Assembly: GCF_900230215.1 (NCBI RefSeq)
Contig: NZ_LT907982.1
Span: 1,054,001-1,118,000 of the forward strand
Length of the DNA stretch: 64,000 nucleotides
Source: Jatrophihabitans sp. GAS493
Lineage (GTDB): Bacteria; Actinomycetota; Actinomycetes; Mycobacteriales; Jatrophihabitantaceae
Direction: 5' to 3'
The notes beneath the pieces were generated by a model. That model was not told the origin of the DNA. It did no database searches and saw only the letters and a list, made by a program, of their open reading frames with translations. Both the position numbers and the translations under genes were made by a program. This document shows, piece by piece, positions 6,578 to 16,218 of this stretch; position 1 is the first letter of the stretch, and each line of letters starts with the position of its first letter.

Positions 6578-6676
6578 TCGTCGAGACTAGGGTGCCTAGC
6601 CCCCCAATTGCCAGAGCCAAGTGAGCTGAGTCGCAGCGCTCAGGCGCCGCACAGCCACGCGTTGAATCCTGATTCG

Positions 6677-7348
6677 ATGAGCAGCGAGTGGAGTCAGCCG
6701 CCGAAGGTCTCGGCCGTCTACTTCGACATCGGCGAGACGGTCCTTGACCGGAGTCGGGAGTACGCGGCCTGGGCGGCCTTCCTCGGGCTGCCGTCGCACA
6801 CCTTCTCGGCGGTCTTCGGTGCGATCGTGAGCCGGGGTGGCGGTGTCAGCGACGTGCTGCACTATCTGCGTCCGTCCGAGAGCGTCGGTTCGCTGCGGGA
6901 CGGGCTGCAGCGTTCCGGGTTGGTGCCGCCGCTGACCGATGAGGACCTTTACCCTGGTGTCCGGATCTTGCTCAAGCAGCTGCGGGCGGCCGGGCTGGCT
7001 GTGGGAATCGTCGGCAATCAGCCGCTGGCGCTGGGTGAGCAACTGCGGCGCCTCGATCTCGACGCTGACGTCGTCGCGGTCTCGGCCGAATGGGGTCTGG
7101 AGAAGCCGGATCCGAGATTCTTCCAGCGCTGCGTCCAGACCGCGGGCTGCGCGTCGGCCGACGTGCTCTACGTGGGCGACCAGCTCGACAACGACGTGCG
7201 GGGGGCGCTGGCCGCCGGGCTGCAGGTGGTGCGGGTTCGTAGCGGACCATGGGGTCTGTTGACCGGTGATGATGAGTTGGAGGCTCGCTGCCTGGCCGTC
7301 ATCGACTCTATCGCCGACCTCGCGGATGTCCTCGATCTGGAGAACTAG
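6677..7348 (+). CDS. HAD superfamily hydrolase (subfamily IA)
   Basis: This 223-residue protein has motif I FDIGETV with the nucleophile Asp, motif II in VGIVGNQP (N in place of the usual S/T), motif III lysine in WGLEKPDPRFF and motif IV VGDQLDNDVRGALAAGL. The second acidic residue of the usual DxDxT is absent (D-I-G-E-T), a common HAD-IA variant. Likely a small-molecule phosphatase. An in-frame open reading extends upstream, but the ATG at 6677 begins the conserved fold and starts just after the divergent dehydrogenase. Confidence 0.83.
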   Translation: MSSEWSQPPKVSAVYFDIGETVLDRSREYAAWAAFLGLPSHTFSAVFGAIVSRGGGVSDVLHYLRPSESVGSLRDGLQRSGLVPPLTDEDLYPGVRILLKQLRAAGLAVGIVGNQPLALGEQLRRLDLDADVVAVSAEWGLEKPDPRFFQRCVQTAGCASADVLYVGDQLDNDVRGALAAGLQVVRVRSGPWGLLTGDDELEARCLAVIDSIADLADVLDLEN

Positions 7349-7349
7349 G

Positions 7350-8462
7350 TCAATGCAGGGTTCGGTTGAAGAACCGCCACAGGAGCAAAGCGGCACCGGG
7401 TGTGGAGGGCGATGTGGTGGGCCAGCCGTGCTCCTGCCCGGTGTAGAGCACGGTGCTGACGGCCGTCCCGCCGGAGCAGCTGGACCAACTCGTGATGGTG
7501 GCCAGACCGTCACGAACACTGGTGGACGTGGCCGAGCAGGCGTCGCGGGTGCGCAATGCGATCGCCGCCGCGGCGAGGGCCGCACCGGCTGGCATAGCGT
7601 CGGTGGAGATCGGCAGTTCCGGGTCGTCCGCCCCGACCACGACCAGGGCCGACGTGTGGCTGCTCGCCGCGCAACTGGTCAGCGGGGTCGCGCTGACTGC
7701 GGCAAAGGCCGCGAAGAGCTGCGGTTCGCGGCACATGACGTCGTAGGCCAACTTGCCACCATTGCTGTAGCCCGCGAGGTAGACGCGCCCGCTCGTCACC
7801 GACTGGCTGCTCTCCGCGGCGGCGACGACATCGGCCACGAAACCGACATCATCGACGTTGGAGGGGCCGGCCTGGCCGCAGCAGCTGTCGGCGTCCACAT
7901 TCCACGACTTCTGGTATCCGGCCGGGTACACCAGGATCGCCTCGCCGCGATTGGCCAGCGGCAGGAGTTCGTCACGCAGCGCCTCCTGCGTCGGTGACGC
8001 ATTCTGACCGGCCAGCACCACGATCAACGGCAGCGGCCCGCTCCGCCGTGAGGGCGCGATCGTCAGGTATGTGCGGAGGATCCCGCCGGAGATCAGCGTT
8101 GACGTAGCGACGGTGGTGGCCGGTGCGAGGAGCTGTACCGCGCTCACCGGGTAGCCGGCCGACGTGACGCTCGAAGTCGGCTGAAATGCGGATGCCGACG
8201 TCGCCGGCGCTGCGGCGGCGACCGAGCGATCGGTCCCGCCGGCCGCGCCGAAGAGGGCGAGCGAGCCCGAGACGAGGACGCAGATAAGCAGAGCGGCCGT
8301 CGCCTGCTGCCAACGATTCCTCCGGCGCGGATTGCCCCGTCGGCCGCCACCCCACCGCCCACTCCGCCCGCTCCACCCGCTCCGCACGGATCGAGACTGC
8401 GGGTCGTTGCTACGGGTGGACCATGAATTCCTGGTGAATCGCCTTTCCCCTCGCCAATTCAC
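7350..8462 (-). CDS. Secreted/anchored LpqC/PHB-depolymerase-like esterase
   Basis: This 370-residue alpha/beta hydrolase has a basic N-terminus, one hydrophobic segment (about residues 52-75, ATAALLICVLVSGSLALFGAAGG) consistent with export or anchoring, and the esterase core. It shows LIVVLAGQNAS, LVYPAGYQKSWNVD, the nucleophile elbow GYSNGGKL, VVGADDPELP (Asp region) and EHGWPTT (His). The pattern with CCG near the Trp/Asn segment is that of PHB depolymerase/feruloyl-esterase-like secreted enzymes. The GTG at 8462 is the longest start; a later start is possible. The gene diverges from the cluster starting at 8477 with only a 14-base gap, so promoters must overlap coding DNA. Confidence 0.8.
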   Translation of the reverse strand: MNWRGERRFTRNSWSTRSNDPQSRSVRSGWSGRSGRWGGGRRGNPRRRNRWQQATAALLICVLVSGSLALFGAAGGTDRSVAAAAPATSASAFQPTSSVTSAGYPVSAVQLLAPATTVATSTLISGGILRTYLTIAPSRRSGPLPLIVVLAGQNASPTQEALRDELLPLANRGEAILVYPAGYQKSWNVDADSCCGQAGPSNVDDVGFVADVVAAAESSQSVTSGRVYLAGYSNGGKLAYDVMCREPQLFAAFAAVSATPLTSCAASSHTSALVVVGADDPELPISTDAMPAGAALAAAAIALRTRDACSATSTSVRDGLATITSWSSCSGGTAVSTVLYTGQEHGWPTTSPSTPGAALLLWRFFNRTLH

Positions 8463-8476
8463 AACGTTCCCTGGGC

Positions 8477-10129
8477 GTGCACCCAGCGGCCTCCAGCAGC
8501 GTGCTGGGAGTGACTACTCACCTGAATGCCATCGGAGGTGGCAGGCAGCGTGGCGGGTCCCTGCGCGCCAACGGGTCCCTGCGCGACATCATTCGCTGGC
8601 AGCGGGCGCGACGGCCGGCCAGCAGCTATCTGGAGGATGCCCGCAGCGACCGAAGCCTGAGCTATGCGGCCCTGGAACGGATCGTCGAGTGCTGGTCGCT
8701 CGTGCTCGCTCGCCGCGACGGCGAGCCCAGCCGAGGAGCGGGCCCGGCGCAGGAGCCCGCCGATCCGCTGGCCGCGCAGCCCCGGATCGCGCTGCTGATC
8801 GACGATCCGTTGGTATTCGCAGCCGTATATCTCTCGGTGATCGCGGCCGGCTGCACCGTCGCTCCGATCGATGCCGGCGTCCCAGCGGCTGAGTTGCGCC
8901 GAATCATCGACCGGCCGGCTGCCGACGCCCCGAACCTGCTCATCACCGACCAGCGAGGGCTCGACGCGGTGGCCGGGTGCCAGATCGTCACGGTCGACAG
9001 CGAAGAGCAGGGCCTGCCACCGGACGAGTTGATCCTGAGGTCTCGGCTGGGCGCGCGGAGTCGTCCGGCGGCGGCGGGCGCGCTTCGCCTCAGCACCTCC
9101 GGCTCAACCGGCCAACCGAAGGTCGTCGAGCTGGGCGAGGCGCAGTTGCTGCACGTCGCCCGGCAGGTCGCCGCGCACAACGAGCTCAGCGACGCGGACC
9201 GGGGCTTCTGCTCGCTGCCGCTGTTTCACATCAACGCGCAGGTGGTCGGGCTCCTCTCCACGCTGGTCAGCGGTGCGACCATGGTCCTCGATCGACGATT
9301 CCATCGCACGGGCTTCTGGGACCTGATGCAGGCCCGCGAGATCACCTGGATCAACGCCGTCCCAGCTATTCTCTCGATACTGTCTCGCGAGGACTTCCCG
9401 CCACCGCTGCCGAAGCTGCGCCTCATCCGCTCGGCCTCCGCGCCGCTACCGTCGTCGGTCCGGACGACGATCGAGACATCGCTGCAGGTGCCGCTGGTCG
9501 AGAGCTACGGCATGACGGAGGCAGCGAGCCAGATCACCGCGACCCCGCTGCACGACCGGGCGCGCCCCGGCAGCGCCGGACGGGCGGTCGGAGTCGAACT
9601 CAGCGTGCGTACCGGTACCGGCGAGTGCGCAGCCACCGATGAGGTCGGACGCATCTGGATTCGCGGGCCCGGGGTCATCACCGGGTACGTCGGAGGGCGG
9701 GCTGCGGAGCGCTTCGACCCGGCCGGCTGGCTCGACACCGGTGACCTCGGGCTCCTCGACGCCGACGGGTACGTGTACCTGCGCGGGCGGGCCGACGACG
9801 TCATCAATCGCGGGGGCGAGCTGATTCACCCCCGAGAAATACAGGAGATTCTCCTCGCTGACCGGCGAGTGCTCGAGGCGATAGTGGTCGGGCGTCCGGA
9901 TCCGGTTCTCGGTGCGGTTGCGGTTGCTCGGGTGATCACGGCCCCGAGCTGTCGCACCGAGCTCGAGCGTGCGGCGTTACTGGCCGACCTCGACCAGCTG
10001 TGCCGAACGCGGCTAAGCCGCTTCAAACGACCAGAGGCGGTGGAGATCGTCGACGACCTGCCGCGGGCCGCCACCGGGAAGATTCGCACCCACCTGGTGC
10101 GTGAACTCGTCTGCCACGGACGCCTGTGA
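8477..10129 (+). CDS. AMP-dependent acid:CoA ligase / adenylating enzyme
   Basis: This 550-residue ANL-family enzyme has the P-loop-like motif LSTSGSTGQPKVVEL, SYGMTEAASQ, the motif LDTGDLGLLDADGYVYLRGRADDVINRGGELI and the C-terminal catalytic lysine in PRAATGKIRTHLV. It activates a carboxylic acid as an acyl-adenylate, probably for transfer to CoA or another thiol. It lacks a fused carrier domain, and the acid substrate cannot be read from sequence. It is the first gene of a compact cluster: its stop overlaps the next start by four bases (GTGA at 10126). GTG at 8477 is the chosen start; GTG a few codons later is possible. Confidence 0.88.
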   Translation: MHPAASSSVLGVTTHLNAIGGGRQRGGSLRANGSLRDIIRWQRARRPASSYLEDARSDRSLSYAALERIVECWSLVLARRDGEPSRGAGPAQEPADPLAAQPRIALLIDDPLVFAAVYLSVIAAGCTVAPIDAGVPAAELRRIIDRPAADAPNLLITDQRGLDAVAGCQIVTVDSEEQGLPPDELILRSRLGARSRPAAAGALRLSTSGSTGQPKVVELGEAQLLHVARQVAAHNELSDADRGFCSLPLFHINAQVVGLLSTLVSGATMVLDRRFHRTGFWDLMQAREITWINAVPAILSILSREDFPPPLPKLRLIRSASAPLPSSVRTTIETSLQVPLVESYGMTEAASQITATPLHDRARPGSAGRAVGVELSVRTGTGECAATDEVGRIWIRGPGVITGYVGGRAAERFDPAGWLDTGDLGLLDADGYVYLRGRADDVINRGGELIHPREIQEILLADRRVLEAIVVGRPDPVLGAVAVARVITAPSCRTELERAALLADLDQLCRTRLSRFKRPEAVEIVDDLPRAATGKIRTHLVRELVCHGRL

Positions 10130-11421
10130 GCATCGTCGAACCGGCGCCGGCTCGCAGCCGGCACATTCACGAACTCGACGTGGTGCGGGTGCTGACCTTC
10201 GCCTGCGTCATCGCCGTACATACCGTGTCCCACACCAACCCGGCTCAGAGTGTCACGGCCGGGGGGTCGTTGATGCTACTGCACTTCACCCGTGAGGCCT
10301 TCTTCGTCCTCACCGGATTCGTCCTTGTTCATCAGTACATTCGTCGTTCCATCGATCTTAGGCGCTTCTACTCTCGTCGCCTGGTCACGGTCGGAATCCC
10401 CTACCTGCTCTGGACAGTTATATACACCTACCTGCCTCAGCACTGGACGGTACCGCGGACGCCGCTCGCCACCCTGTTCGCGAACATCTTGACCGGGGCG
10501 GCGTGCTATCACCTGTACTTCCTGCTGGTGTCGCTGCAGATCTACCTGCTCTACCCGCTGCTGGCCATGGTGATTCGAGCCACCGCCGACCACCATGGGC
10601 CGCTACTGGCGGTGAGCGCCCTCACGCAGCTGGGATTTCTTGCTTACCTCACTTACGGGTCGCTCCCCTCGGGATGGGCGGCGACGCTGCTGCGGCACCA
10701 GGACGCACTGCTGATCTCCTACCAGTTCTACGTCATCCTGGGTGCCGTCTGCGCCTTCCACAGTGATCTGCTCAGGTCCTGCGTCGCCCGGCATCGAGGA
10801 GTCATCGGTAGCGCGCTGCTCCCGGTCGCCCTGATCGCGATCGGGGTCTTCAGTCTGCAACTAGGGGCCGGTTGGACGCCGATTCACGCCTCGGCCGTAC
10901 TGCAGCCGGTAATGGTGATCTGGTCGATTGCGGCGGTGTCCGGACTCTTCGCGCTCGGATCGCTCTGGTCCGAGCGGCGGGTACCCGGAGCATGGTTGGA
11001 TCGCGGACTGGCCTACGGATCTGACCGGTCGTTCGGCATCTTCCTCGTCCATCCGGCGGTTCTCGCCTACGTGCTCGATGTCGGTTGGCTGCGACGGACG
11101 CCCGCCGTTCCGCAGACCCTCCTCGCCTACGCGGCCACGGTCGCCGGATCCGTCGTCGTAGTCGAGTTGTTCCGGCGAACGCCGCTGAGCAGACCGCTCA
11201 CCGGACGTTCGATGCTGACCGGCACCGGTGTTCACAAGTGGTTCACGCAAAATTCTCAGCCTTACCTCGAGACCCCGGACGAACATTCAATACACAACGA
11301 ACGAAAGGGAAAACATCATGCACTCAACGGCACTGGATCTTCCCGAACATCAGAGCAAGCCCCGCTCGATCGGCGTCACGATGGTGATGGACGGCGGCCT
11401 ACCGACCCGGTACTTCATTGA
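10126..11421 (+). CDS. Acyltransferase 3 family integral membrane protein
   Basis: This 431-residue protein has about ten hydrophobic segments and an N-terminus typical of the AT3 family (ELDVVRVLTFACVIAVHTVSH, then FFVLTGFVL and RRFYSRRLVTVGIPYLLWT). The His in the first helix and the RR-containing loop correspond to the conserved AT3 residues. AT3 proteins move acyl groups from cytoplasmic acyl-CoA to extracytoplasmic glycans or lipids. Translation is coupled to the upstream ligase by a four-base overlap. The soluble C-terminal 34 codons run 104 bases into comA in another frame, an unusually long overlap. Confidence 0.87.
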   Translation: MSIVEPAPARSRHIHELDVVRVLTFACVIAVHTVSHTNPAQSVTAGGSLMLLHFTREAFFVLTGFVLVHQYIRRSIDLRRFYSRRLVTVGIPYLLWTVIYTYLPQHWTVPRTPLATLFANILTGAACYHLYFLLVSLQIYLLYPLLAMVIRATADHHGPLLAVSALTQLGFLAYLTYGSLPSGWAATLLRHQDALLISYQFYVILGAVCAFHSDLLRSCVARHRGVIGSALLPVALIAIGVFSLQLGAGWTPIHASAVLQPVMVIWSIAAVSGLFALGSLWSERRVPGAWLDRGLAYGSDRSFGIFLVHPAVLAYVLDVGWLRRTPAVPQTLLAYAATVAGSVVVVELFRRTPLSRPLTGRSMLTGTGVHKWFTQNSQPYLETPDEHSIHNERKGKHHALNGTGSSRTSEQAPLDRRHDGDGRRPTDPVLH

Positions 11422-12145
11422 CGTCGTCTCCAGCTTCGGTGGGCTAATCGACGTGATGAAGCTCGGCTGGGGTACCTCGCTGGTCACCGACGACCTCAAG
11501 TACAAGATCGACGCGCTGGCCGATGCCGGGGTGGACTTCTACTTCGGTGGCACTCTCTTCGAGAAGTTCCTGAGCCAGGATCGCTTCGATGACTGGCGAC
11601 GCTTCTGCGATCGCTTCGACTGTCGCTATGTCGAGGTATCCAACGGAACGATCCCCCTCAGTAATCAGCGAAAAGCTCAGTATGTCGACTTGCTCGCCAA
11701 TGATTATCGAGTCTTCAGCGAGGTCGGATTCAAGGACCAGGCCAAATCCGAGGCGATGACCGCGCAGGTCTGGATCGACTACATCCGCCAAGATCTCGCC
11801 GCGGGAGCCCACATGGTGATCACCGAGTCCCGGGAGAGCGGCAAGAGCGGCATCTGCAGTGCGGACGGGCGCCTCAAGCGCGACCTCATCGACCAGATCG
11901 CCGAGTCGGACATCAACCTCGATCGGGTTCTCTTCGAAGCGCCGACGAAGGACGTGCAGATCCAGTTGATCCGCCGCTTCGGTTCGCAGGTGAATCTGGG
12001 CAACATCAGCACCAGTGACATCGTCGCGCTGGAGACACTTCGGCTCGGGCTGCGGGGCGACACCCTGCTCGACTTCGCCACCGTGTCCCGGCCAGACTAT
12101 GACGCCGCGGGTGAGGCCGTGGGGCGCGAGGTTCAGCATGCGTGA
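11318..12145 (+). CDS. ComA-like phosphosulfolactate synthase
   Basis: This 275-residue TIM-barrel protein matches the ComA family almost end to end: MDGGLPTRYFIDVV, IDVMKLGWGTSLV, FGGTLFEKFL, SRESGKSGI, LFEAPTKDVQ, FGSQVNLGNI and LETLRLGLRGDT. ComA adds sulfite to phosphoenolpyruvate to give (R)-2-phospho-3-sulfolactate, the first step of coenzyme M synthesis in methanogens; bacterial homologues make sulfolactate, and plant HSA32 is a related protein of other function. The segment EVSNG replaces EISDG as I recall it in the archaeal enzyme, so the exact chemistry needs checking. The ATG at 11318 has GAAAGGGA seven bases upstream. The end overlaps the next gene by eight bases. Confidence 0.88.
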   Translation: MHSTALDLPEHQSKPRSIGVTMVMDGGLPTRYFIDVVSSFGGLIDVMKLGWGTSLVTDDLKYKIDALADAGVDFYFGGTLFEKFLSQDRFDDWRRFCDRFDCRYVEVSNGTIPLSNQRKAQYVDLLANDYRVFSEVGFKDQAKSEAMTAQVWIDYIRQDLAAGAHMVITESRESGKSGICSADGRLKRDLIDQIAESDINLDRVLFEAPTKDVQIQLIRRFGSQVNLGNISTSDIVALETLRLGLRGDTLLDFATVSRPDYDAAGEAVGREVQHA

Positions 12146-12536
12146 GAGCGGCGACGCCTTCCACCTGGCGATCCCGGCGCGCGACCTGGATGAGGCGCAT
12201 GAGTTCTACGTGGGCGGCCTGGGCTGCAAGCTGGCCCGGCGCTACGGAGACCGGATCACCCTGGATTTCTTCGGCGATCAGGTCGTCTGCCACCTCTCTG
12301 CCAAGTTCGAGCGGGCGCCGGAGCTCTACCCCCGTCACTTCGGCGTCACATTCCGCAGCATCGAGGACTACGACCGACTGGTTCACCTGGCCGAGACGCG
12401 TGGCCTTCGCTTCTATGCCAAGCCCTTCACCCGGTTCGAGACTATGGTGGAGGAGCACAGCAGCTTCGTGCTGCAGGATCCCTCGAACAATCTCCTGGAA
12501 TTCAAACACTATTCCGACCCGCGGATGATGTACTGA
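12138..12536 (+). CDS. VOC (glyoxalase/dioxygenase fold) family protein
   Basis: This 132-residue protein has one pair of beta-alpha-beta-beta-beta modules. It starts with FHLAIPARDLDEAHEFYVGGLGCKLARRYGD and ends with FVLQDPSNNLLEFKHY, whose D-P-S-N-N-x-L-E-F signature carries the metal-ligand Glu; the first His (H in FHLAIP) is the other expected ligand. Members are lyases, isomerases or dioxygenases. It overlaps comA by eight bases, so it is very likely co-translated and acts on an intermediate of the same pathway. Confidence 0.85.
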   Translation: MRESGDAFHLAIPARDLDEAHEFYVGGLGCKLARRYGDRITLDFFGDQVVCHLSAKFERAPELYPRHFGVTFRSIEDYDRLVHLAETRGLRFYAKPFTRFETMVEEHSSFVLQDPSNNLLEFKHYSDPRMMY

Positions 12537-12564
12537 AGCTGGATCTGCGTCCGATCGAGCGAGA

Positions 12565-13338
12565 ATGGGTGGCGCGGTTGTGAAGGGCGCCGGTCGCCGC
12601 AAGTTCTGGGTCAGTGCCACCGCGTTGGGCGTCGCAGCCGCCGCCGGTACCGTCGCCCTGGTTCAGCATGAGGCGCCCTCCCCGGTTAACGACGCGGGTG
12701 CTGCGGTTGGAGCACACTCGAGCGAGACGCCGATCCGGCTCGGTACGGTGCGCTCGCGTCGGTTGTTGGTGGTGGGCGCGTCCTACACCGAGGGTCTCGG
12801 TGCGTCGTCGCCCGAGCAGGGTTACGCCTACCAGTTGGGTCGAGAGCTGGGTTGGCCGACCACTGTCGATGGGGCGTCGGGAACCGGCTTCCTCAACCCC
12901 GGGCCGCGGGATCAGGGCACCTTCGCCGCCCGGATACGCCGCCTTCCATCGTCGGTAGCTCCGGGTATCGTCCTGCTGCAGTGCGGCCGAAACGACGCGC
13001 AGTATCCGGGCGCCGAGGTTCGGCGTGCGGTGATTAGCACAATTAAGCTCATCCGGTCGCTCTACCCCGAGGCTCAGCTCACCTTCCTCGGTCCCATCCC
13101 GGGGGCACTGCCGGTTCAGCCGGATTTAGCGGATGATCAACGCCTGCTCGCGCAGACGGCGCGAGCCGAACGAGTCCCGTTCATCGACCCGATCGCGGAG
13201 CGGTGGATCACGCCGAAGAATGAGCGGCGCTTCTCCGGGCCGGTGCCGGCGCACCCCGACGACGCGGGCTACGCCTACATCGCCGGACGGGTAGCGGCTG
13301 ACCTCCGGGCGTTGATGGGTGCCCCGACTCAGATCTGA
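12565..13338 (+). CDS. Membrane-anchored SGNH/GDSL hydrolase
   Basis: This 257-residue protein has an N-terminal hydrophobic segment (residues about 15-32) followed by an SGNH fold. Block I is VVGASYTEGLG (nucleophile Ser), block II contains GASGTGFLNPG, block III is LLQCGRNDAQYPG with the oxyanion Asn, and block V is HPDDAGYAYIA with the catalytic His. SGNH esterases and acyltransferases act on glycan O-acyl groups outside the membrane and are often fused to AT3 domains, which is notable because an AT3 gene lies in the same cluster. It starts 28 bases after the VOC gene on the same strand. Confidence 0.85.
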   Translation: MGGAVVKGAGRRKFWVSATALGVAAAAGTVALVQHEAPSPVNDAGAAVGAHSSETPIRLGTVRSRRLLVVGASYTEGLGASSPEQGYAYQLGRELGWPTTVDGASGTGFLNPGPRDQGTFAARIRRLPSSVAPGIVLLQCGRNDAQYPGAEVRRAVISTIKLIRSLYPEAQLTFLGPIPGALPVQPDLADDQRLLAQTARAERVPFIDPIAERWITPKNERRFSGPVPAHPDDAGYAYIAGRVAADLRALMGAPTQI

Positions 13339-14121: not shown

Positions 14122-14250
14122 GACACACATGGTGCCGTACGTTGGTATTGGATGGTTTGGAACTGCGACCGCGGGGTATAGCAGTGGTAGGCCGGCTGCG
14201 CAGTGCAGGCCGGCGGGACGCTGACGATCAGGAAAGCGAGACAGCTCGAC

Positions 14251-14724
14251 ATGACTACCTTGGAATCGATCCCGAGCGACACCAAGCAGGTCGCAAACGA
14301 TGTCGCGAGCGGAGTCGCGGACGCGATCACCACCGCCGTCGCCACGGCCTCCGATGCGGTCTCCGACGCGGTCGAGTCGGCCAAGCGTCAGGGACGTCGC
14401 GCCCGCCGCAAGGCACACCGCGCGACGAAGGCGCAGAACCGTCGGGCCCAGAAGCAGGTCAAGAAGACTCGCAGTGACGCGGCTACGCTCCTTTCCGACT
14501 TCAGCGAAGAGGCAGCCCGCCGGGCGACCGACGTCGCCGCCGCCGCGCAGGGTCGCGGCAGCAAGAAGGCAAAGAAGCACGGCAAGTTCTACTGGACCGT
14601 GCTCACAGTGGCGATCCTCGGTGCGGCCGCAGGAGGCGGGAAGTACCTCGCCGACAAGGCCGCCGACAAGAGCGCAGCCAAGAGCGCGCCGCCGGTGCAG
14701 CCTCGTGAGCCCGCCGCGATCTAG
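14251..14724 (+). CDS. Basic, Ala/Lys-rich membrane protein of unknown function
   Basis: This 157-residue protein begins with a helical, coiled-coil-like stretch (SDTKQVANDVASGVADAITT) and then a strongly basic segment (KRQGRRARRKAHRATKAQNRRAQKQVKKTR). One hydrophobic segment follows at about residues 112-130 (FYWTVLTVAILGAAAGGGKYL). No known domain is recognised. The start is the ATG at 14251; a frame with upstream TTG/ATG exists from 14203. It is convergent with the epoxide hydrolase. It may interact with nucleic acid or an acidic surface through the basic segment, but this is inference. Confidence 0.65.
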   Translation: MTTLESIPSDTKQVANDVASGVADAITTAVATASDAVSDAVESAKRQGRRARRKAHRATKAQNRRAQKQVKKTRSDAATLLSDFSEEAARRATDVAAAAQGRGSKKAKKHGKFYWTVLTVAILGAAAGGGKYLADKAADKSAAKSAPPVQPREPAAI

Positions 14725-14738
14725 GCCGTCCCTGTGCT

Positions 14739-15725
14739 CTAGACCCGCGCTGGGAGGCCGTTCAGCCAGTCGATGAGCAGCCGGTTGACCGCCTCGGGGT
14801 GCTCCTGCTGGATCCAATGACCGCAATTCGCGAGGATGTGTGACGACACCAGACCCGGAAGGGTGGTCGGGTAGCGCCGAATCGCGTCGGCCAGCCAGCT
14901 ACTGGATGCGTCGAGTTCGCCGCCGATGAACAGCGACGGCTGGGTGATGGGTGCGCCGTCCCAGTCGGCGAGGTCCTCCCAGTCACGGTCGATATTGCGG
15001 TACCGGTTCAGCGCGCCGGTGAAGCCCGTCCGTTCGAACTCCTCGGTGTAGGCGTCGAGTTCCTCCGCGCTGAGCCAGGCCGGACGCACGCCGGCGGCGG
15101 CGGGGAAGCGATCGGAGAGCCGCCCACCCCGTTTCACCATGAAAATGCTCCTCATCTCATCCGCCGTGACGACGTCGGCGGAGAGACCGGCGTAGATTCC
15201 GGCCAACCACCCGCGGACGTCGGGCTCGATCTCGGCCTCGGCCCGTCCGGGCTGCTGGAAGTAGCTGATGTAGAACTCCTCTCCCTCCCCGCCGATGCGG
15301 CCCATCGACTCGGTGGGCCGGTACCGGCTGCGCGGTGAGTAGGGCACGCTGAGCAGCGCCACCGCGGTGAAGACCTCTGGGTGCAGCAGCGCCGAGTTCG
15401 CCGCGATGGGTGAACCCCAGTCATGACCGATGATCGCCGCCGTATCTTCGCCCAGGGCGCGAACGACGCCGACGTTGTCCGCGACCAGTTCGAGCATCCG
15501 GTAGGCCTCGATCTCGGACGGTTTCGATGAGCGCCCGTAGCCGCGCACGTCGATGGCCACCGCCCGGTAGCCCGCCGCGGCGAGCGCCGGGAGCTGGCGC
15601 CGCCAGGAGAACCAGGACTCCGGGAAGCCGTGGACGAGCAGAACAAGTGGCCCAACCCCCTGCTCGACCAGGTGAATCCGGCCGCCGGCTACTTCCAGAA
15701 CTCGATGCTGCCCCTCGTCGCTCAT
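14739..15725 (-). CDS. Epoxide hydrolase-like alpha/beta hydrolase (EphA type)
   Basis: This 328-residue enzyme has the oxyanion motif HGFPESWFSWRRQL, the nucleophile elbow GHDWGSPIA with catalytic Asp, IDVRGYGRSSKP, and the C-terminal NCGHWIQQEHPEAVNRLL with catalytic His. HGFPE plus an Asp nucleophile distinguishes epoxide hydrolases from lipases and esterases. A cap-domain Tyr (in RTGFTGALNRYRNIDRDW) matches a lid tyrosine that activates the epoxide. It would hydrolyse epoxides to diols. It is divergent from the VOC gene at 15808. Confidence 0.87.
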   Translation of the reverse strand: MSDEGQHRVLEVAGGRIHLVEQGVGPLVLLVHGFPESWFSWRRQLPALAAAGYRAVAIDVRGYGRSSKPSEIEAYRMLELVADNVGVVRALGEDTAAIIGHDWGSPIAANSALLHPEVFTAVALLSVPYSPRSRYRPTESMGRIGGEGEEFYISYFQQPGRAEAEIEPDVRGWLAGIYAGLSADVVTADEMRSIFMVKRGGRLSDRFPAAAGVRPAWLSAEELDAYTEEFERTGFTGALNRYRNIDRDWEDLADWDGAPITQPSLFIGGELDASSSWLADAIRRYPTTLPGLVSSHILANCGHWIQQEHPEAVNRLLIDWLNGLPARV

Positions 15726-15807
15726 GGGCCGAGTCTAGGGATCGTTCGCACCGTCGCGGCTGGCGACGGCTGGATGGATGGTCGAACGGGGAGCTAGGTT
15801 GGGTCAC

Positions 15808-16218
15808 ATGGATTGGACTCTTGAGGTCGTCATCGTGCCCGTCAGTGACATCGCCCGCTCCATCGAGTTCTACCGGGACAGAGTCGGCTTCCATCTCGAT
15901 CACGACACCACCAACGAGTACATGCATGTCGCCCAGCTCACCCCGCCCGGGTCGGGCTGCTCGATCGTCATCGGCGATCTCCCAGCCCAGCGCGCGATGG
16001 AACCGGGATCGTTGAAGGGCGTGCAGCTGGTGGTGGCCGATGCTTACCGGGCGCGGGAGGAGTTGCTCGCCCGCGGCGTCGAGGTGAGCGAAATAACCGT
16101 TTTCGACGAGCGCGACGGCGGCACCTTCTTTGGTTTCGACGACCCAGACGGAAATTCCTGGGCCGTTCAGCAGCTGAAGGCTCGCGCCCAGAAGCCACTG
16201 ATTCCGAAGAGTGAGTGA
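15808..16218 (+). CDS. VOC family (glyoxalase-like) protein
   Basis: This 136-residue single-domain VOC protein starts MDWTLEVVIVPVSDIARSIEFYRDRVGFHLDHDT and ends FFGFDDPDGNSWAVQQL, the DPDGN-W signature of the YcdJ-like subgroup. The usual C-terminal metal Glu is replaced by Trp-Ala-Val-Gln-Gln, so metal binding is uncertain. An upstream frame extends to 15778, but the ATG at 15808 follows the shared VOC start. Function unknown. Confidence 0.78.
   Translation: MDWTLEVVIVPVSDIARSIEFYRDRVGFHLDHDTTNEYMHVAQLTPPGSGCSIVIGDLPAQRAMEPGSLKGVQLVVADAYRAREELLARGVEVSEITVFDERDGGTFFGFDDPDGNSWAVQQLKARAQKPLIPKSE

What the first reader, a model, noticed from the sequence alone, without database searches (positions are those of the whole stretch)
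8477..13338. Compact cluster pairing a ComA-like sulfonate synthase with an acid ligase, membrane acyltransferase and SGNH hydrolase
Seen: five co-directional genes, with overlaps of 4, 104 and 8 bases and a 28-base gap, encoding an adenylating enzyme, acyltransferase 3, phosphosulfolactate synthase-like protein, a VOC protein and an anchored SGNH hydrolase. Known: ComA makes phosphosulfolactate from PEP and sulfite; AT3 proteins move acyl groups across the membrane and are often fused to SGNH domains. Inference: the cluster may make and export a sulfolactate-derived or sulfonated acyl group onto a surface glycan or lipid, a role I do not know from the literature. A secreted esterase diverges from it.
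Basis: partly seen in the sequence, partly recalled or inferred. Interest (0 to 1): 0.75.

Follow-up and report, generated by a model that had tools for sequence, protein, structure and literature searches.

The report
Sulfonate-making cell-surface acylation gene cassette
Many soil and peat bacteria carry a recurring set of genes that seems to build a small sulfur-containing acid, activate it and pass it through the membrane, probably to decorate the cell surface with strongly acidic groups; no experiment has yet tested this.

Summary
Among 81 loci (window plus the 80 best ComA hits) VOC follows ComA in 72; the ligase is near in 59, AT3 in 52. In a 396-genome sample the six clear VOC orthologues, and the six best ligase genomes, are the same six, all with this cassette. 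Ligase and AT3 are fused in two related genomes; two Humibacter genomes carry the cassette split in two; an MBOAT replaces AT3 in one locus; three unrelated phosphatases, one of them ComB, occur beside ComA; 6 of 9 Bacillaceae loci lie beside sulfate-to-sulfite genes, and the 7 Bacillaceae genomes searched lack the ligase, as in known spore-sulfolactate synthesis. Most likely: PEP + sulfite -> phosphosulfolactate -> sulfolactate (perhaps modified by VOC) -> acyl-CoA -> AT3 -> ester on an exported acceptor. No step is biochemically shown; acyl group, acceptor and VOC reaction are inferred or unknown. New variant of a known kind (AT3 surface acylation).

The parts
6674..7348 (+). HAD-type hydrolase, candidate phosphosulfolactate phosphatase (start approximate; the open frame runs from 6233)
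   Evidence: Pfam HAD_2 48.4 bits. Homologue directly upstream of the ligase in Jatrophihabitans MAG L057 and directly upstream of ComA in two Humibacter genomes L059, L060. Weak point: 43-45% identical homologues also occur in seven order relatives that lack the cassette.
7350..8462 (-). secreted PHB-depolymerase-like esterase, optional member
   Evidence: Pfam Esterase_PHB, one N-terminal hydrophobic stretch; the family lies near ComA in 9 of 81 loci; 36% identical over 258 columns to the esterase of Acidiferrimicrobium L129.
8477..10129 (+). AMP-forming acid-CoA ligase (start may be 8501 or 8510)
   Evidence: AMP-binding and AMP-binding_C; the three best solved relatives are oxalate-CoA ligases; near ComA in 59 of 81 loci; the 6 best-scoring genomes of 396 are the 6 with the cassette.
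10126..11421 (+). acyltransferase-3 membrane protein
   Evidence: Acyl_transf_3 115.9 bits; R/K-X10-H in 48 of 48 family members, R21 and H32 here; natural fusion to the ligase in L079 and L127.
11318..12145 (+). ComA-like (2R)-phospho-3-sulfolactate synthase
   Evidence: Pfam ComA 273.5 bits; nearest solved structure 1u83 phosphosulfolactate synthase, E 6.3e-76; purine-rich stretch just before the ATG; only PF02679 match in the genome.
12138..12536 (+). VOC (vicinal oxygen chelate) protein, dedicated partner of ComA
   Evidence: Glyoxalase 45 bits; H9, H52, H67 and E121 invariant in 37 sequences; directly after ComA in 72 of 81 loci; orthologue structure 3rri, Z 23.9, then Fos proteins, Z about 14.
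12565..13338 (+). membrane-anchored or secreted SGNH/GDSL hydrolase, candidate extracytoplasmic transferase or esterase
   Evidence: Lipase_GDSL_2 57 bits; motifs GASYTEG at 71, GRND at 141, HPDDAGY at 230, N-terminal hydrophobic stretch; S73, D144 and H230 kept in all 8 family members aligned (N143 is not in that list).

Best explanation
The cassette is a sulfonate-building module (ComA, VOC, a phosphatase) joined to an acyl-export module (acid-CoA ligase, AT3, and optionally an SGNH or PHB-type esterase). ComA adds sulfite to PEP to give phosphosulfolactate. A phosphatase (here probably the nearby HAD protein; elsewhere ComB or a histidine phosphatase) removes the phosphate to give sulfolactate. 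The VOC protein acts on the sulfonated C3 acid, in a reaction not known. The ligase converts the sulfonated acid to its CoA thioester. AT3 carries the acyl group across the membrane and, alone or with the extracytoplasmic SGNH protein, esterifies it to a hydroxyl of an exported or surface molecule. The result would be a surface or secreted product bearing sulfolactyl-type groups that stay negatively charged at low pH. Shown by sequence: the protein families, conserved motifs, gene linkage, fusion and gene replacements. Inferred: every reaction, the acyl group and the acceptor.
For: Linkage: ComA-VOC in 72 of 81 loci, all same strand; ligase and AT3 both near in 51 of 81. Independent of how the 80 loci were chosen: of 396 phylum genomes 6 have a VOC hit of 164.8 bits or more (next 64.4), each adjacent to ComA (positions compared), and the 6 best ligase genomes (297.2 bits or more; next 217.5) are the same 6. 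Unlinked co-occurrence: two Humibacter genomes carry HAD-ComA-VOC in one place and ligase-AT3 in another. Fusion: AT3 and ligase in one 868- or 894-residue frame in L079 and L127. Replacement: ligase, a protein with SGNH-like motifs, MBOAT, ComB, ComA in L106. Three phosphatase kinds (histidine phosphatase 43, ComB 10, HAD 4 loci), never two kinds in one locus. Sulfite supply: CysH, Sat or CysC genes at 8 of 81 loci, 6 Bacillaceae and 2 actinobacterial. 7 of 7 Bacillaceae genomes searched lack the ligase at E 1e-50, matching the free spore sulfolactate of B. subtilis (PMC517825 passages). Ligase nearest in PDB to oxalate-CoA ligases, whose substrate is a small dianionic acid; AT3's only NCBIfam hit is the MdoC model, 38.7 bits against a cut-off of 338, and MdoC succinylates periplasmic glucans (PMC9558356 passages). 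The same passages describe acyl-CoA as AT3 donor and an AT3-only protein passing acetyl to a separate SGNH protein.
Against: No biochemistry for any member. The ComA equivalog model TIGR03849 is below its cut-off (224.1 vs 280). The ligase passes no cut-off among the 25 of 104 NCBIfam hits shown, so its acid is unknown and could be a fatty acid (the best model is FadD7 family). In 18 of 59 ligase loci no phosphatase of the three kinds is within 6.5 kb (some contigs are cut). The HAD family also occurs without the cassette. Solitary cassette-type ComA copies exist (L061/L042, L044, L087). Two Chloroflexi loci lack VOC and have an FMN-dependent dehydrogenase gene between AT3 and ComA. B. glycinifermentans L114 shows neither VOC nor ComB beside ComA. 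The 80 loci were chosen by similarity to cassette-type ComA, which favours the cassette. No acceptor-making gene (such as a glycosyltransferase) stood out among the recurrent neighbour families, but most of those were named by eye or not at all.
Confidence: 0.5

Rival explanations
1. Reverse topology: sulfolactate (or the VOC product) is the acceptor. The ligase activates a fatty or short acid and AT3 esterifies the hydroxyl of a sulfolactate head group, giving a sulfonated lipid or an O-acyl sulfolactate.
For: The best NCBIfam model of the ligase is FadD7 family fatty acid-CoA ligase (275 bits, below its cut-off of 650); AT3 proteins accept varied acyl groups; the same gene linkage would result.
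Against: The three nearest solved relatives are oxalate-CoA ligases. ComA and VOC look cytoplasmic (no hydrophobic stretch), whereas AT3 acceptors are extracytoplasmic, so an exporter for sulfolactate would be needed; the transporter families noticed are present in a minority (CitMHS-type 15 of 81).
Confidence: 0.2
2. The product is a secreted small molecule (a sulfonated specialised metabolite), not a surface modification; AT3 and SGNH tailor or release it.
For: In Actinomadura rubrisoli L090 ComA-VOC lies with a carrier protein-condensation protein, a radical SAM protein and a shorter ligase; Streptomyces physcomitrii L109 forms a 100/98 clade with it.
Against: Those two loci look exceptional: no AT3 within 6.5 kb, and ligase scores of 379 and 363 bits against 541 or more at all other ligase loci except L071, L072, L073 (cut or split) and L106. 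I noticed no assembly-line genes at the other loci, but not every neighbour was annotated.
Confidence: 0.13
3. The ComA homologue uses another nucleophile or substrate, so the cassette has nothing to do with sulfonates.
For: I know of no activity test in this clade; cassette-type ComA has G, N, T, S or P where the 7 other actinobacterial rows have K in D-K-G; TIGR03849 cut-off not met.
Against: 1u83, named phosphosulfolactate synthase in the PDB, has the same D-N-G form and is the closest solved relative. ComB and CysH/Sat/CysC genes next to ComA-VOC in Bacillaceae point to sulfite and phosphosulfolactate.
Confidence: 0.1
4. Ordinary coenzyme M or free sulfolactate synthesis, with the ligase, AT3 and hydrolase as chance neighbours.
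For: ComA is the first enzyme of coenzyme M synthesis in a methanogen (passage in PMC2627906), and Bacillaceae relatives look like free-sulfolactate makers.
Against: The window's genome has no ComB match and no sulfopyruvate decarboxylase beta subunit above cut-off. Ligase and AT3 recur with ComA in Actinomycetota, Alicyclobacillaceae and Chloroflexota and co-occur even unlinked.
Confidence: 0.07

Closest known systems
Bacillus subtilis spore sulfolactate genes yitCD and yitBA-yisZ
   Same: Inferred phosphosulfolactate synthesis (PMC517825). That yitD is the ComA, yitC the ComB and yitBA-yisZ the sulfate-reduction genes is recalled. 8 of 9 Bacillaceae loci here have ComB-ComA-VOC and 6 of 9 have CysH, Sat or CysC genes.
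   Different: No acid ligase or AT3 near ComA; L114 (B. glycinifermentans) also lacks VOC. The window has ligase, AT3, VOC and SGNH, and no ComB.
Methanogen coenzyme M pathway (ComA-E)
   Same: First enzyme is homologous.
   Different: ComB absent and ComE below cut-off in the window's genome.
AT3 and AT3-SGNH surface acylation systems (OafB, OatA, MdoC/OpgC)
   Same: Membrane AT3 with R-X10-H motif, acyl-CoA logic, extracytoplasmic SGNH partner.
   Different: The passages read name acetyl, propionyl, succinyl and methylmalonyl groups, not sulfonated ones; here the donor appears to be built by dedicated genes, with its own acid ligase, fused to AT3 in two genomes.
MBOAT-SGNH acylation pairs (PatA-PatB, alginate acetylation); D-alanylation of teichoic acid (recalled)
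   Same: Membrane acyltransferase with SGNH-like protein (PMC12148441 abstract), here with an activating enzyme; in L106 the acyltransferase is an MBOAT.
   Different: Different acyl group proposed; no carrier protein seen in the window's cassette.
Fosfomycin-resistance VOC proteins (FosA, FosX, FosB)
   Same: Closest named structural relatives of the VOC partner after its orthologue 3rri by VIA-align (best rows Z 13.3-14.4, rmsd 2.8-3.0 A, 113-121 aligned residues).
   Different: 14-23% identity, native substrate of the partner unknown. Foldseek ranks integron-cassette and dioxygenase-III-related VOC proteins ahead of them. A shared fold shows no shared reaction.

Membership tests
Phosphosulfolactate synthase (ComA, PF02679) | Pfam ComA model above curated cut-off over the full domain | tested here: met
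   273.5 bits, cut-off 25.2, profile 2-243 of 243.
Phosphosulfolactate synthase (ComA, PF02679) | NCBIfam equivalog TIGR03849 (archaeal ComA) | tested here: not met
   224.1 bits, cut-off 280. So it is a ComA-family protein, not filed as the archaeal equivalog.
Phosphosulfolactate synthase (ComA, PF02679) | Adds sulfite to PEP | not testable with these tools
   Needs an enzyme assay; only indirect support from CysH/Sat/CysC and ComB neighbours.
Coenzyme M biosynthesis | ComB phosphatase (PF04029) in the genome | tested here: not met
   0 matches in G000; 7 of 14 control genomes ring.
Coenzyme M biosynthesis | Sulfopyruvate decarboxylase beta subunit (TIGR03846) above cut-off | tested here: not met
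   Best 37.4 bits, cut-off 221.5; over the cut-off in 2 of 14 control genomes.
Acyltransferase-3 (PF01757) | Pfam Acyl_transf_3 above cut-off | tested here: met
   115.9 bits, cut-off 31.
Acyltransferase-3 (PF01757) | R/K-X10-H motif | tested here: met
   48 of 48 family members have the pattern in the first 120 residues; R21 and H32 at least 90% conserved in 45 aligned; motif named in PMC9558356.
AT3 surface acylation system | Transfers an acyl group from acyl-CoA to an extracytoplasmic acceptor | not testable with these tools
   Needs labelling or mass spectrometry.
Acid-CoA ligase (AMP-binding superfamily) | AMP-binding and C-terminal domains with the C-terminal lysine | tested here: met
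   PF00501 and PF13193; K535 conserved in at least 90% of 55 aligned. That this is the catalytic lysine is recalled.
Acid-CoA ligase (AMP-binding superfamily) | Assignment to a named ligase of known substrate | tested here: not met
   No cut-off reached among the best 25 of 104 NCBIfam hits shown; best 275.4 of 650 bits.
VOC metalloenzyme | VOC fold with metal-ligand type residues | tested here: met
   Model pLDDT 95.8, 3rri Z 23.9; H9, H52, H67, E121 invariant in 37 rows. That these are the metal positions is recalled from VOC families; metal binding not tested.
Fosfomycin-resistance proteins | Fosfomycin-modifying activity | not testable with these tools
   Only fold similarity, Z about 14, 14-23% identity.
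SGNH/GDSL hydrolase | Pfam match and S, G, N, H blocks | tested here: met
   57 bits, cut-off 32.9; GASYTEG, GRND and HPDDAGY motifs present. NCBIfam GDSL_lipase equivalog is below cut-off (51.4 of 300).

The most novel reading that the evidence does not exclude
A system spread over several bacterial phyla makes its own sulfonated acyl group (sulfolactate or a VOC-modified derivative) and esterifies it to the cell surface: surface sulfolactylation, a sulfonate counterpart of succinylation that stays charged at low pH. The VOC protein would be a new enzyme of sulfonate metabolism that binds a small phospho- or sulfonate substrate in a Fos-like site.
Probability: 0.38. Interest if true: 0.82.

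Novelty: new variant of a known kind. Interest (0 to 1): 0.66.

Why it matters
If right, many soil and peat Actinomycetota, and Alicyclobacillaceae and Chloroflexota (habitats read from record titles or recalled), decorate an exported molecule with a sulfonate made from PEP and sulfite. My two searches for such a group listed 2 and 5 papers, none with a title or abstract start about surface sulfolactate (only passages of PMC2627906 and PMC2954221 were opened). It would also be a source of environmental sulfolactate other than sulfoquinovose breakdown, give a role to bacterial ComA homologues outside coenzyme M and spores, and give a substrate class to the VOC protein of entry 3rri, for which one search found no paper. 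The hypothesis can be tested directly in cultured strains such as Humibacter albus DSM 18994.

Tried and rejected
Rejected: a selected AT3/ComA overlap (its length varies). Rejected: coenzyme M synthesis in this genome. Rejected: chance adjacency. Not resolved: the VOC reaction. VIA-align ranks Fos proteins next after the orthologue, but TioX, bleomycin-binding and other VOC proteins follow within about 1-2 Z units, and Foldseek's order differs, so no reaction can be read off. A VOC homologue at 44% identity lies on a Geminocystis plasmid with no ComA among the annotated genes of the 14.4-kb stretch. The idea that the divergent esterase is matched by the secreted protein upstream of Humibacter ligase-AT3 failed (no Pfam match). 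PHROGs gave no ComA match. Literature: searches listed no paper whose title or abstract start describes this cassette; searches showed only 15 of 358 and 20 of 221 papers, most listed papers were not opened, and most subscription papers are not held. Graham et al. 2002 (ComA) was seen only as a citation.

Caveats on counts: the 80 loci are the best of 367 confirmed stretches by similarity to a cassette-type alignment. L061 and L092 come from one genome. Of the 9 loci without a VOC HMM hit, L058 ends inside ComA and L106 has a VOC match by tblastn whose frame holds a stop. Profiles were built from the same loci, the HAD profile from 4 sequences only. each drew 396 phylum genomes; I take them as the same draw because handles and tallies agree. 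In one search only 3 candidates per genome were scored. Neighbour clustering used mechanical ORFs.

Full report
WHAT IS THERE. The window lies in a 4.88-Mb single-contig genome; the nearest named relative of its cluster is a Jatrophihabitans MAG (L057). ComA is the only PF02679 match in the genome. The divergent secreted esterase (7350-8462) and a HAD hydrolase (ending at 7348) flank the cluster.

IS IT A UNIT? Three tests, two of them independent of how the 80 loci were chosen. (a) The best 80 ComA hits in a collection of 84,980 species genomes plus the window: within 6.5 kb of ComA, VOC is found in 72 of 81, always just downstream on the same strand; ligase in 59; AT3 in 52; ligase and AT3 both in 51; VOC, ligase and AT3 in 47. 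Of the 49 loci with at least 4.5 kb on each side the numbers are VOC 42, ligase 34, AT3 31. Gene order differs (ligase-AT3-ComA-VOC; ComA-VOC-ligase-AT3; AT3-ligase-ComA-VOC), so linkage survives rearrangement. (b) In 396 phylum genomes the VOC protein has 6 hits of 164.8 bits or more, all adjacent to ComA, and nothing else above 64.4 bits (positions compared); the ligase has 6 genomes at 297.2 bits or more, the same 6, then 217.5. These 6 are the window's own genome and 5 others from two families (f55, f67). In that sample 37 of 396 genomes have some ComA, so most actinobacterial ComA genes are of another type. (c) In two Humibacter genomes HAD-ComA-VOC stand without ligase or AT3 nearby, yet each genome has a 51% identical ligase elsewhere, next to AT3. 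Of 10 Bacillota genomes searched, the 3 Alicyclobacillus have the ligase and the 7 Bacillaceae do not, at E 1e-50.

FUSION AND REPLACEMENTS. L079 and L127, two sister Acidimicrobiaceae MAGs, encode AT3 and ligase as one open frame of 868 and 894 residues with both domains above Pfam cut-offs; this is probably one fusion event. In L106, a Bacteroidetes MAG, the order is ligase, a 334-residue protein with SGNH-like motifs (my reading of the sequence; no significant Pfam match), MBOAT, ComB, ComA, and a VOC stretch with a stop in frame. A phosphatase lies nearby in 57 of 81 loci and is of three unrelated kinds, histidine phosphatase 43, ComB 10 and HAD 4, never two kinds in one locus. CysH, Sat or CysC genes of sulfate reduction to sulfite lie at 8 of 81 loci: L076, L114, L124, L128, L132 and L135 (6 of the 9 Bacillaceae loci), and L065 and L127 (actinobacterial). 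In B. [quoted passage not shown] (2R)-3-sulfolactic acid has been seen as a ligand in entry 1vr0 (table in PMC2954221; that 1vr0 is a ComB protein is recalled).

THE PROTEINS. ComA: the closest solved relatives are 1u83 and 1qwg, both named phosphosulfolactate synthase. K139, aligned with K137 of 1qwg, is invariant in the 18-row alignment; that this lysine is catalytic is recalled. A tree of 91 rows puts 84 rows (the window, all 80 loci including Bacillaceae, Alicyclobacillaceae and Chloroflexota, and three solitary copies L039, L042, L044) in one clade (100/100) apart from 7 actinobacterial ComA rows of the other type (midpoint root, for drawing only). VOC: 42 columns invariant in 37 sequences from Actinomycetota to Bacillaceae, among them H9, H52, H67 and E121. 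The model (pLDDT 95.8) matches 3rri (Alicyclobacillus acidocaldarius, 65% identity, Z 23.9) and then FosA, FosX and FosB (Z about 14), which act on the phosphonate fosfomycin (Foldseek's order differs). Ligase: the three best solved relatives are oxalate-CoA ligases; no cut-off is met among the 25 NCBIfam hits shown. AT3: R-X10-H in 48 of 48, a motif predicted to bind acyl-CoA (PMC9558356, passages). SGNH: motif blocks and an N-terminal hydrophobic stretch are present. MBOAT-SGNH pairs move acyl groups from cytoplasmic acyl-CoA to envelope polymers (PMC12148441, abstract).

MECHANISM. The simplest scheme that uses every recurring part: sulfite + PEP (ComA), dephosphorylation (HAD, histidine phosphatase or ComB), VOC step, activation to a CoA thioester (ligase), transfer through the membrane (AT3 or MBOAT) and finishing by an SGNH or PHB-type esterase. 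The Bacillaceae version would stop at the free acid; the versions with ligase and AT3 would export it as an ester. The sulfonated acid as acyl donor is favoured over acceptor because the ligase and AT3 are linked to the acid-making genes, are fused to each other, and the ligase resembles enzymes for small dianionic acids; confidence is moderate. The window's genome has two PAPS-reductase-domain genes elsewhere, so sulfite can plausibly be made. The VOC step is open. Two Chloroflexi loci lack VOC and have an FMN_dh family gene (typical of 2-hydroxyacid oxidation, recalled) between AT3 and ComA, which hints at chemistry on C2 of sulfolactate.

AGAINST. No biochemistry; equivalog cut-offs not met for ComA and ligase; solitary cassette-type ComA copies (L061/L042, L044, L087); 18 of 59 ligase loci without a recognised phosphatase nearby; HAD homologues outside cassettes; B. 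glycinifermentans L114 with neither VOC nor ComB hit; natural-product-like context in two loci; no acceptor gene identified.

VERDICT. The listings of searches showed no paper on the cassette.

Noticed in passing
L090:3349-11168 and L109:8610-11192: Actinomadura rubrisoli and Streptomyces physcomitrii have ComA-VOC with a shorter ligase; in L090 also a carrier-condensation protein and a radical SAM protein, a possible sulfonate-containing specialised metabolite.
   Followed up: partly
L091:7806-9946 and L131:7861-9926: Chloroflexi versions lack VOC and have an FMN-dependent dehydrogenase and an alpha/beta hydrolase between AT3 and ComA.
   Followed up: partly
L130:8008-9048 and 14159-15541 (and similar loci): In many Acidimicrobiaceae loci the cassette is flanked by a CitMHS/ArsB-type transporter (15 of 81, one of them a weak hit in L076) and a ClC chloride channel (12 of 81).
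   Followed up: no
L040, L041, L049, L051, L052, L054, L055: A second type of actinobacterial ComA (D-K-G) without the cassette, function unknown; Corynebacterium glutamicum cg2797, reported as acid-induced (PMC2627906 passages), is described there as a ComA homologue.
   Followed up: no
L175:6986-7414 (Geminocystis plasmid): A 44% identical VOC homologue near YbaK and TauD/TfdA family genes, no annotated ComA in the 14.4-kb stretch.
   Followed up: partly
window 15778-16218: A second VOC-like ORF between an alpha/beta hydrolase ORF and a DeoR-like regulator ORF (all named by eye).
   Followed up: no
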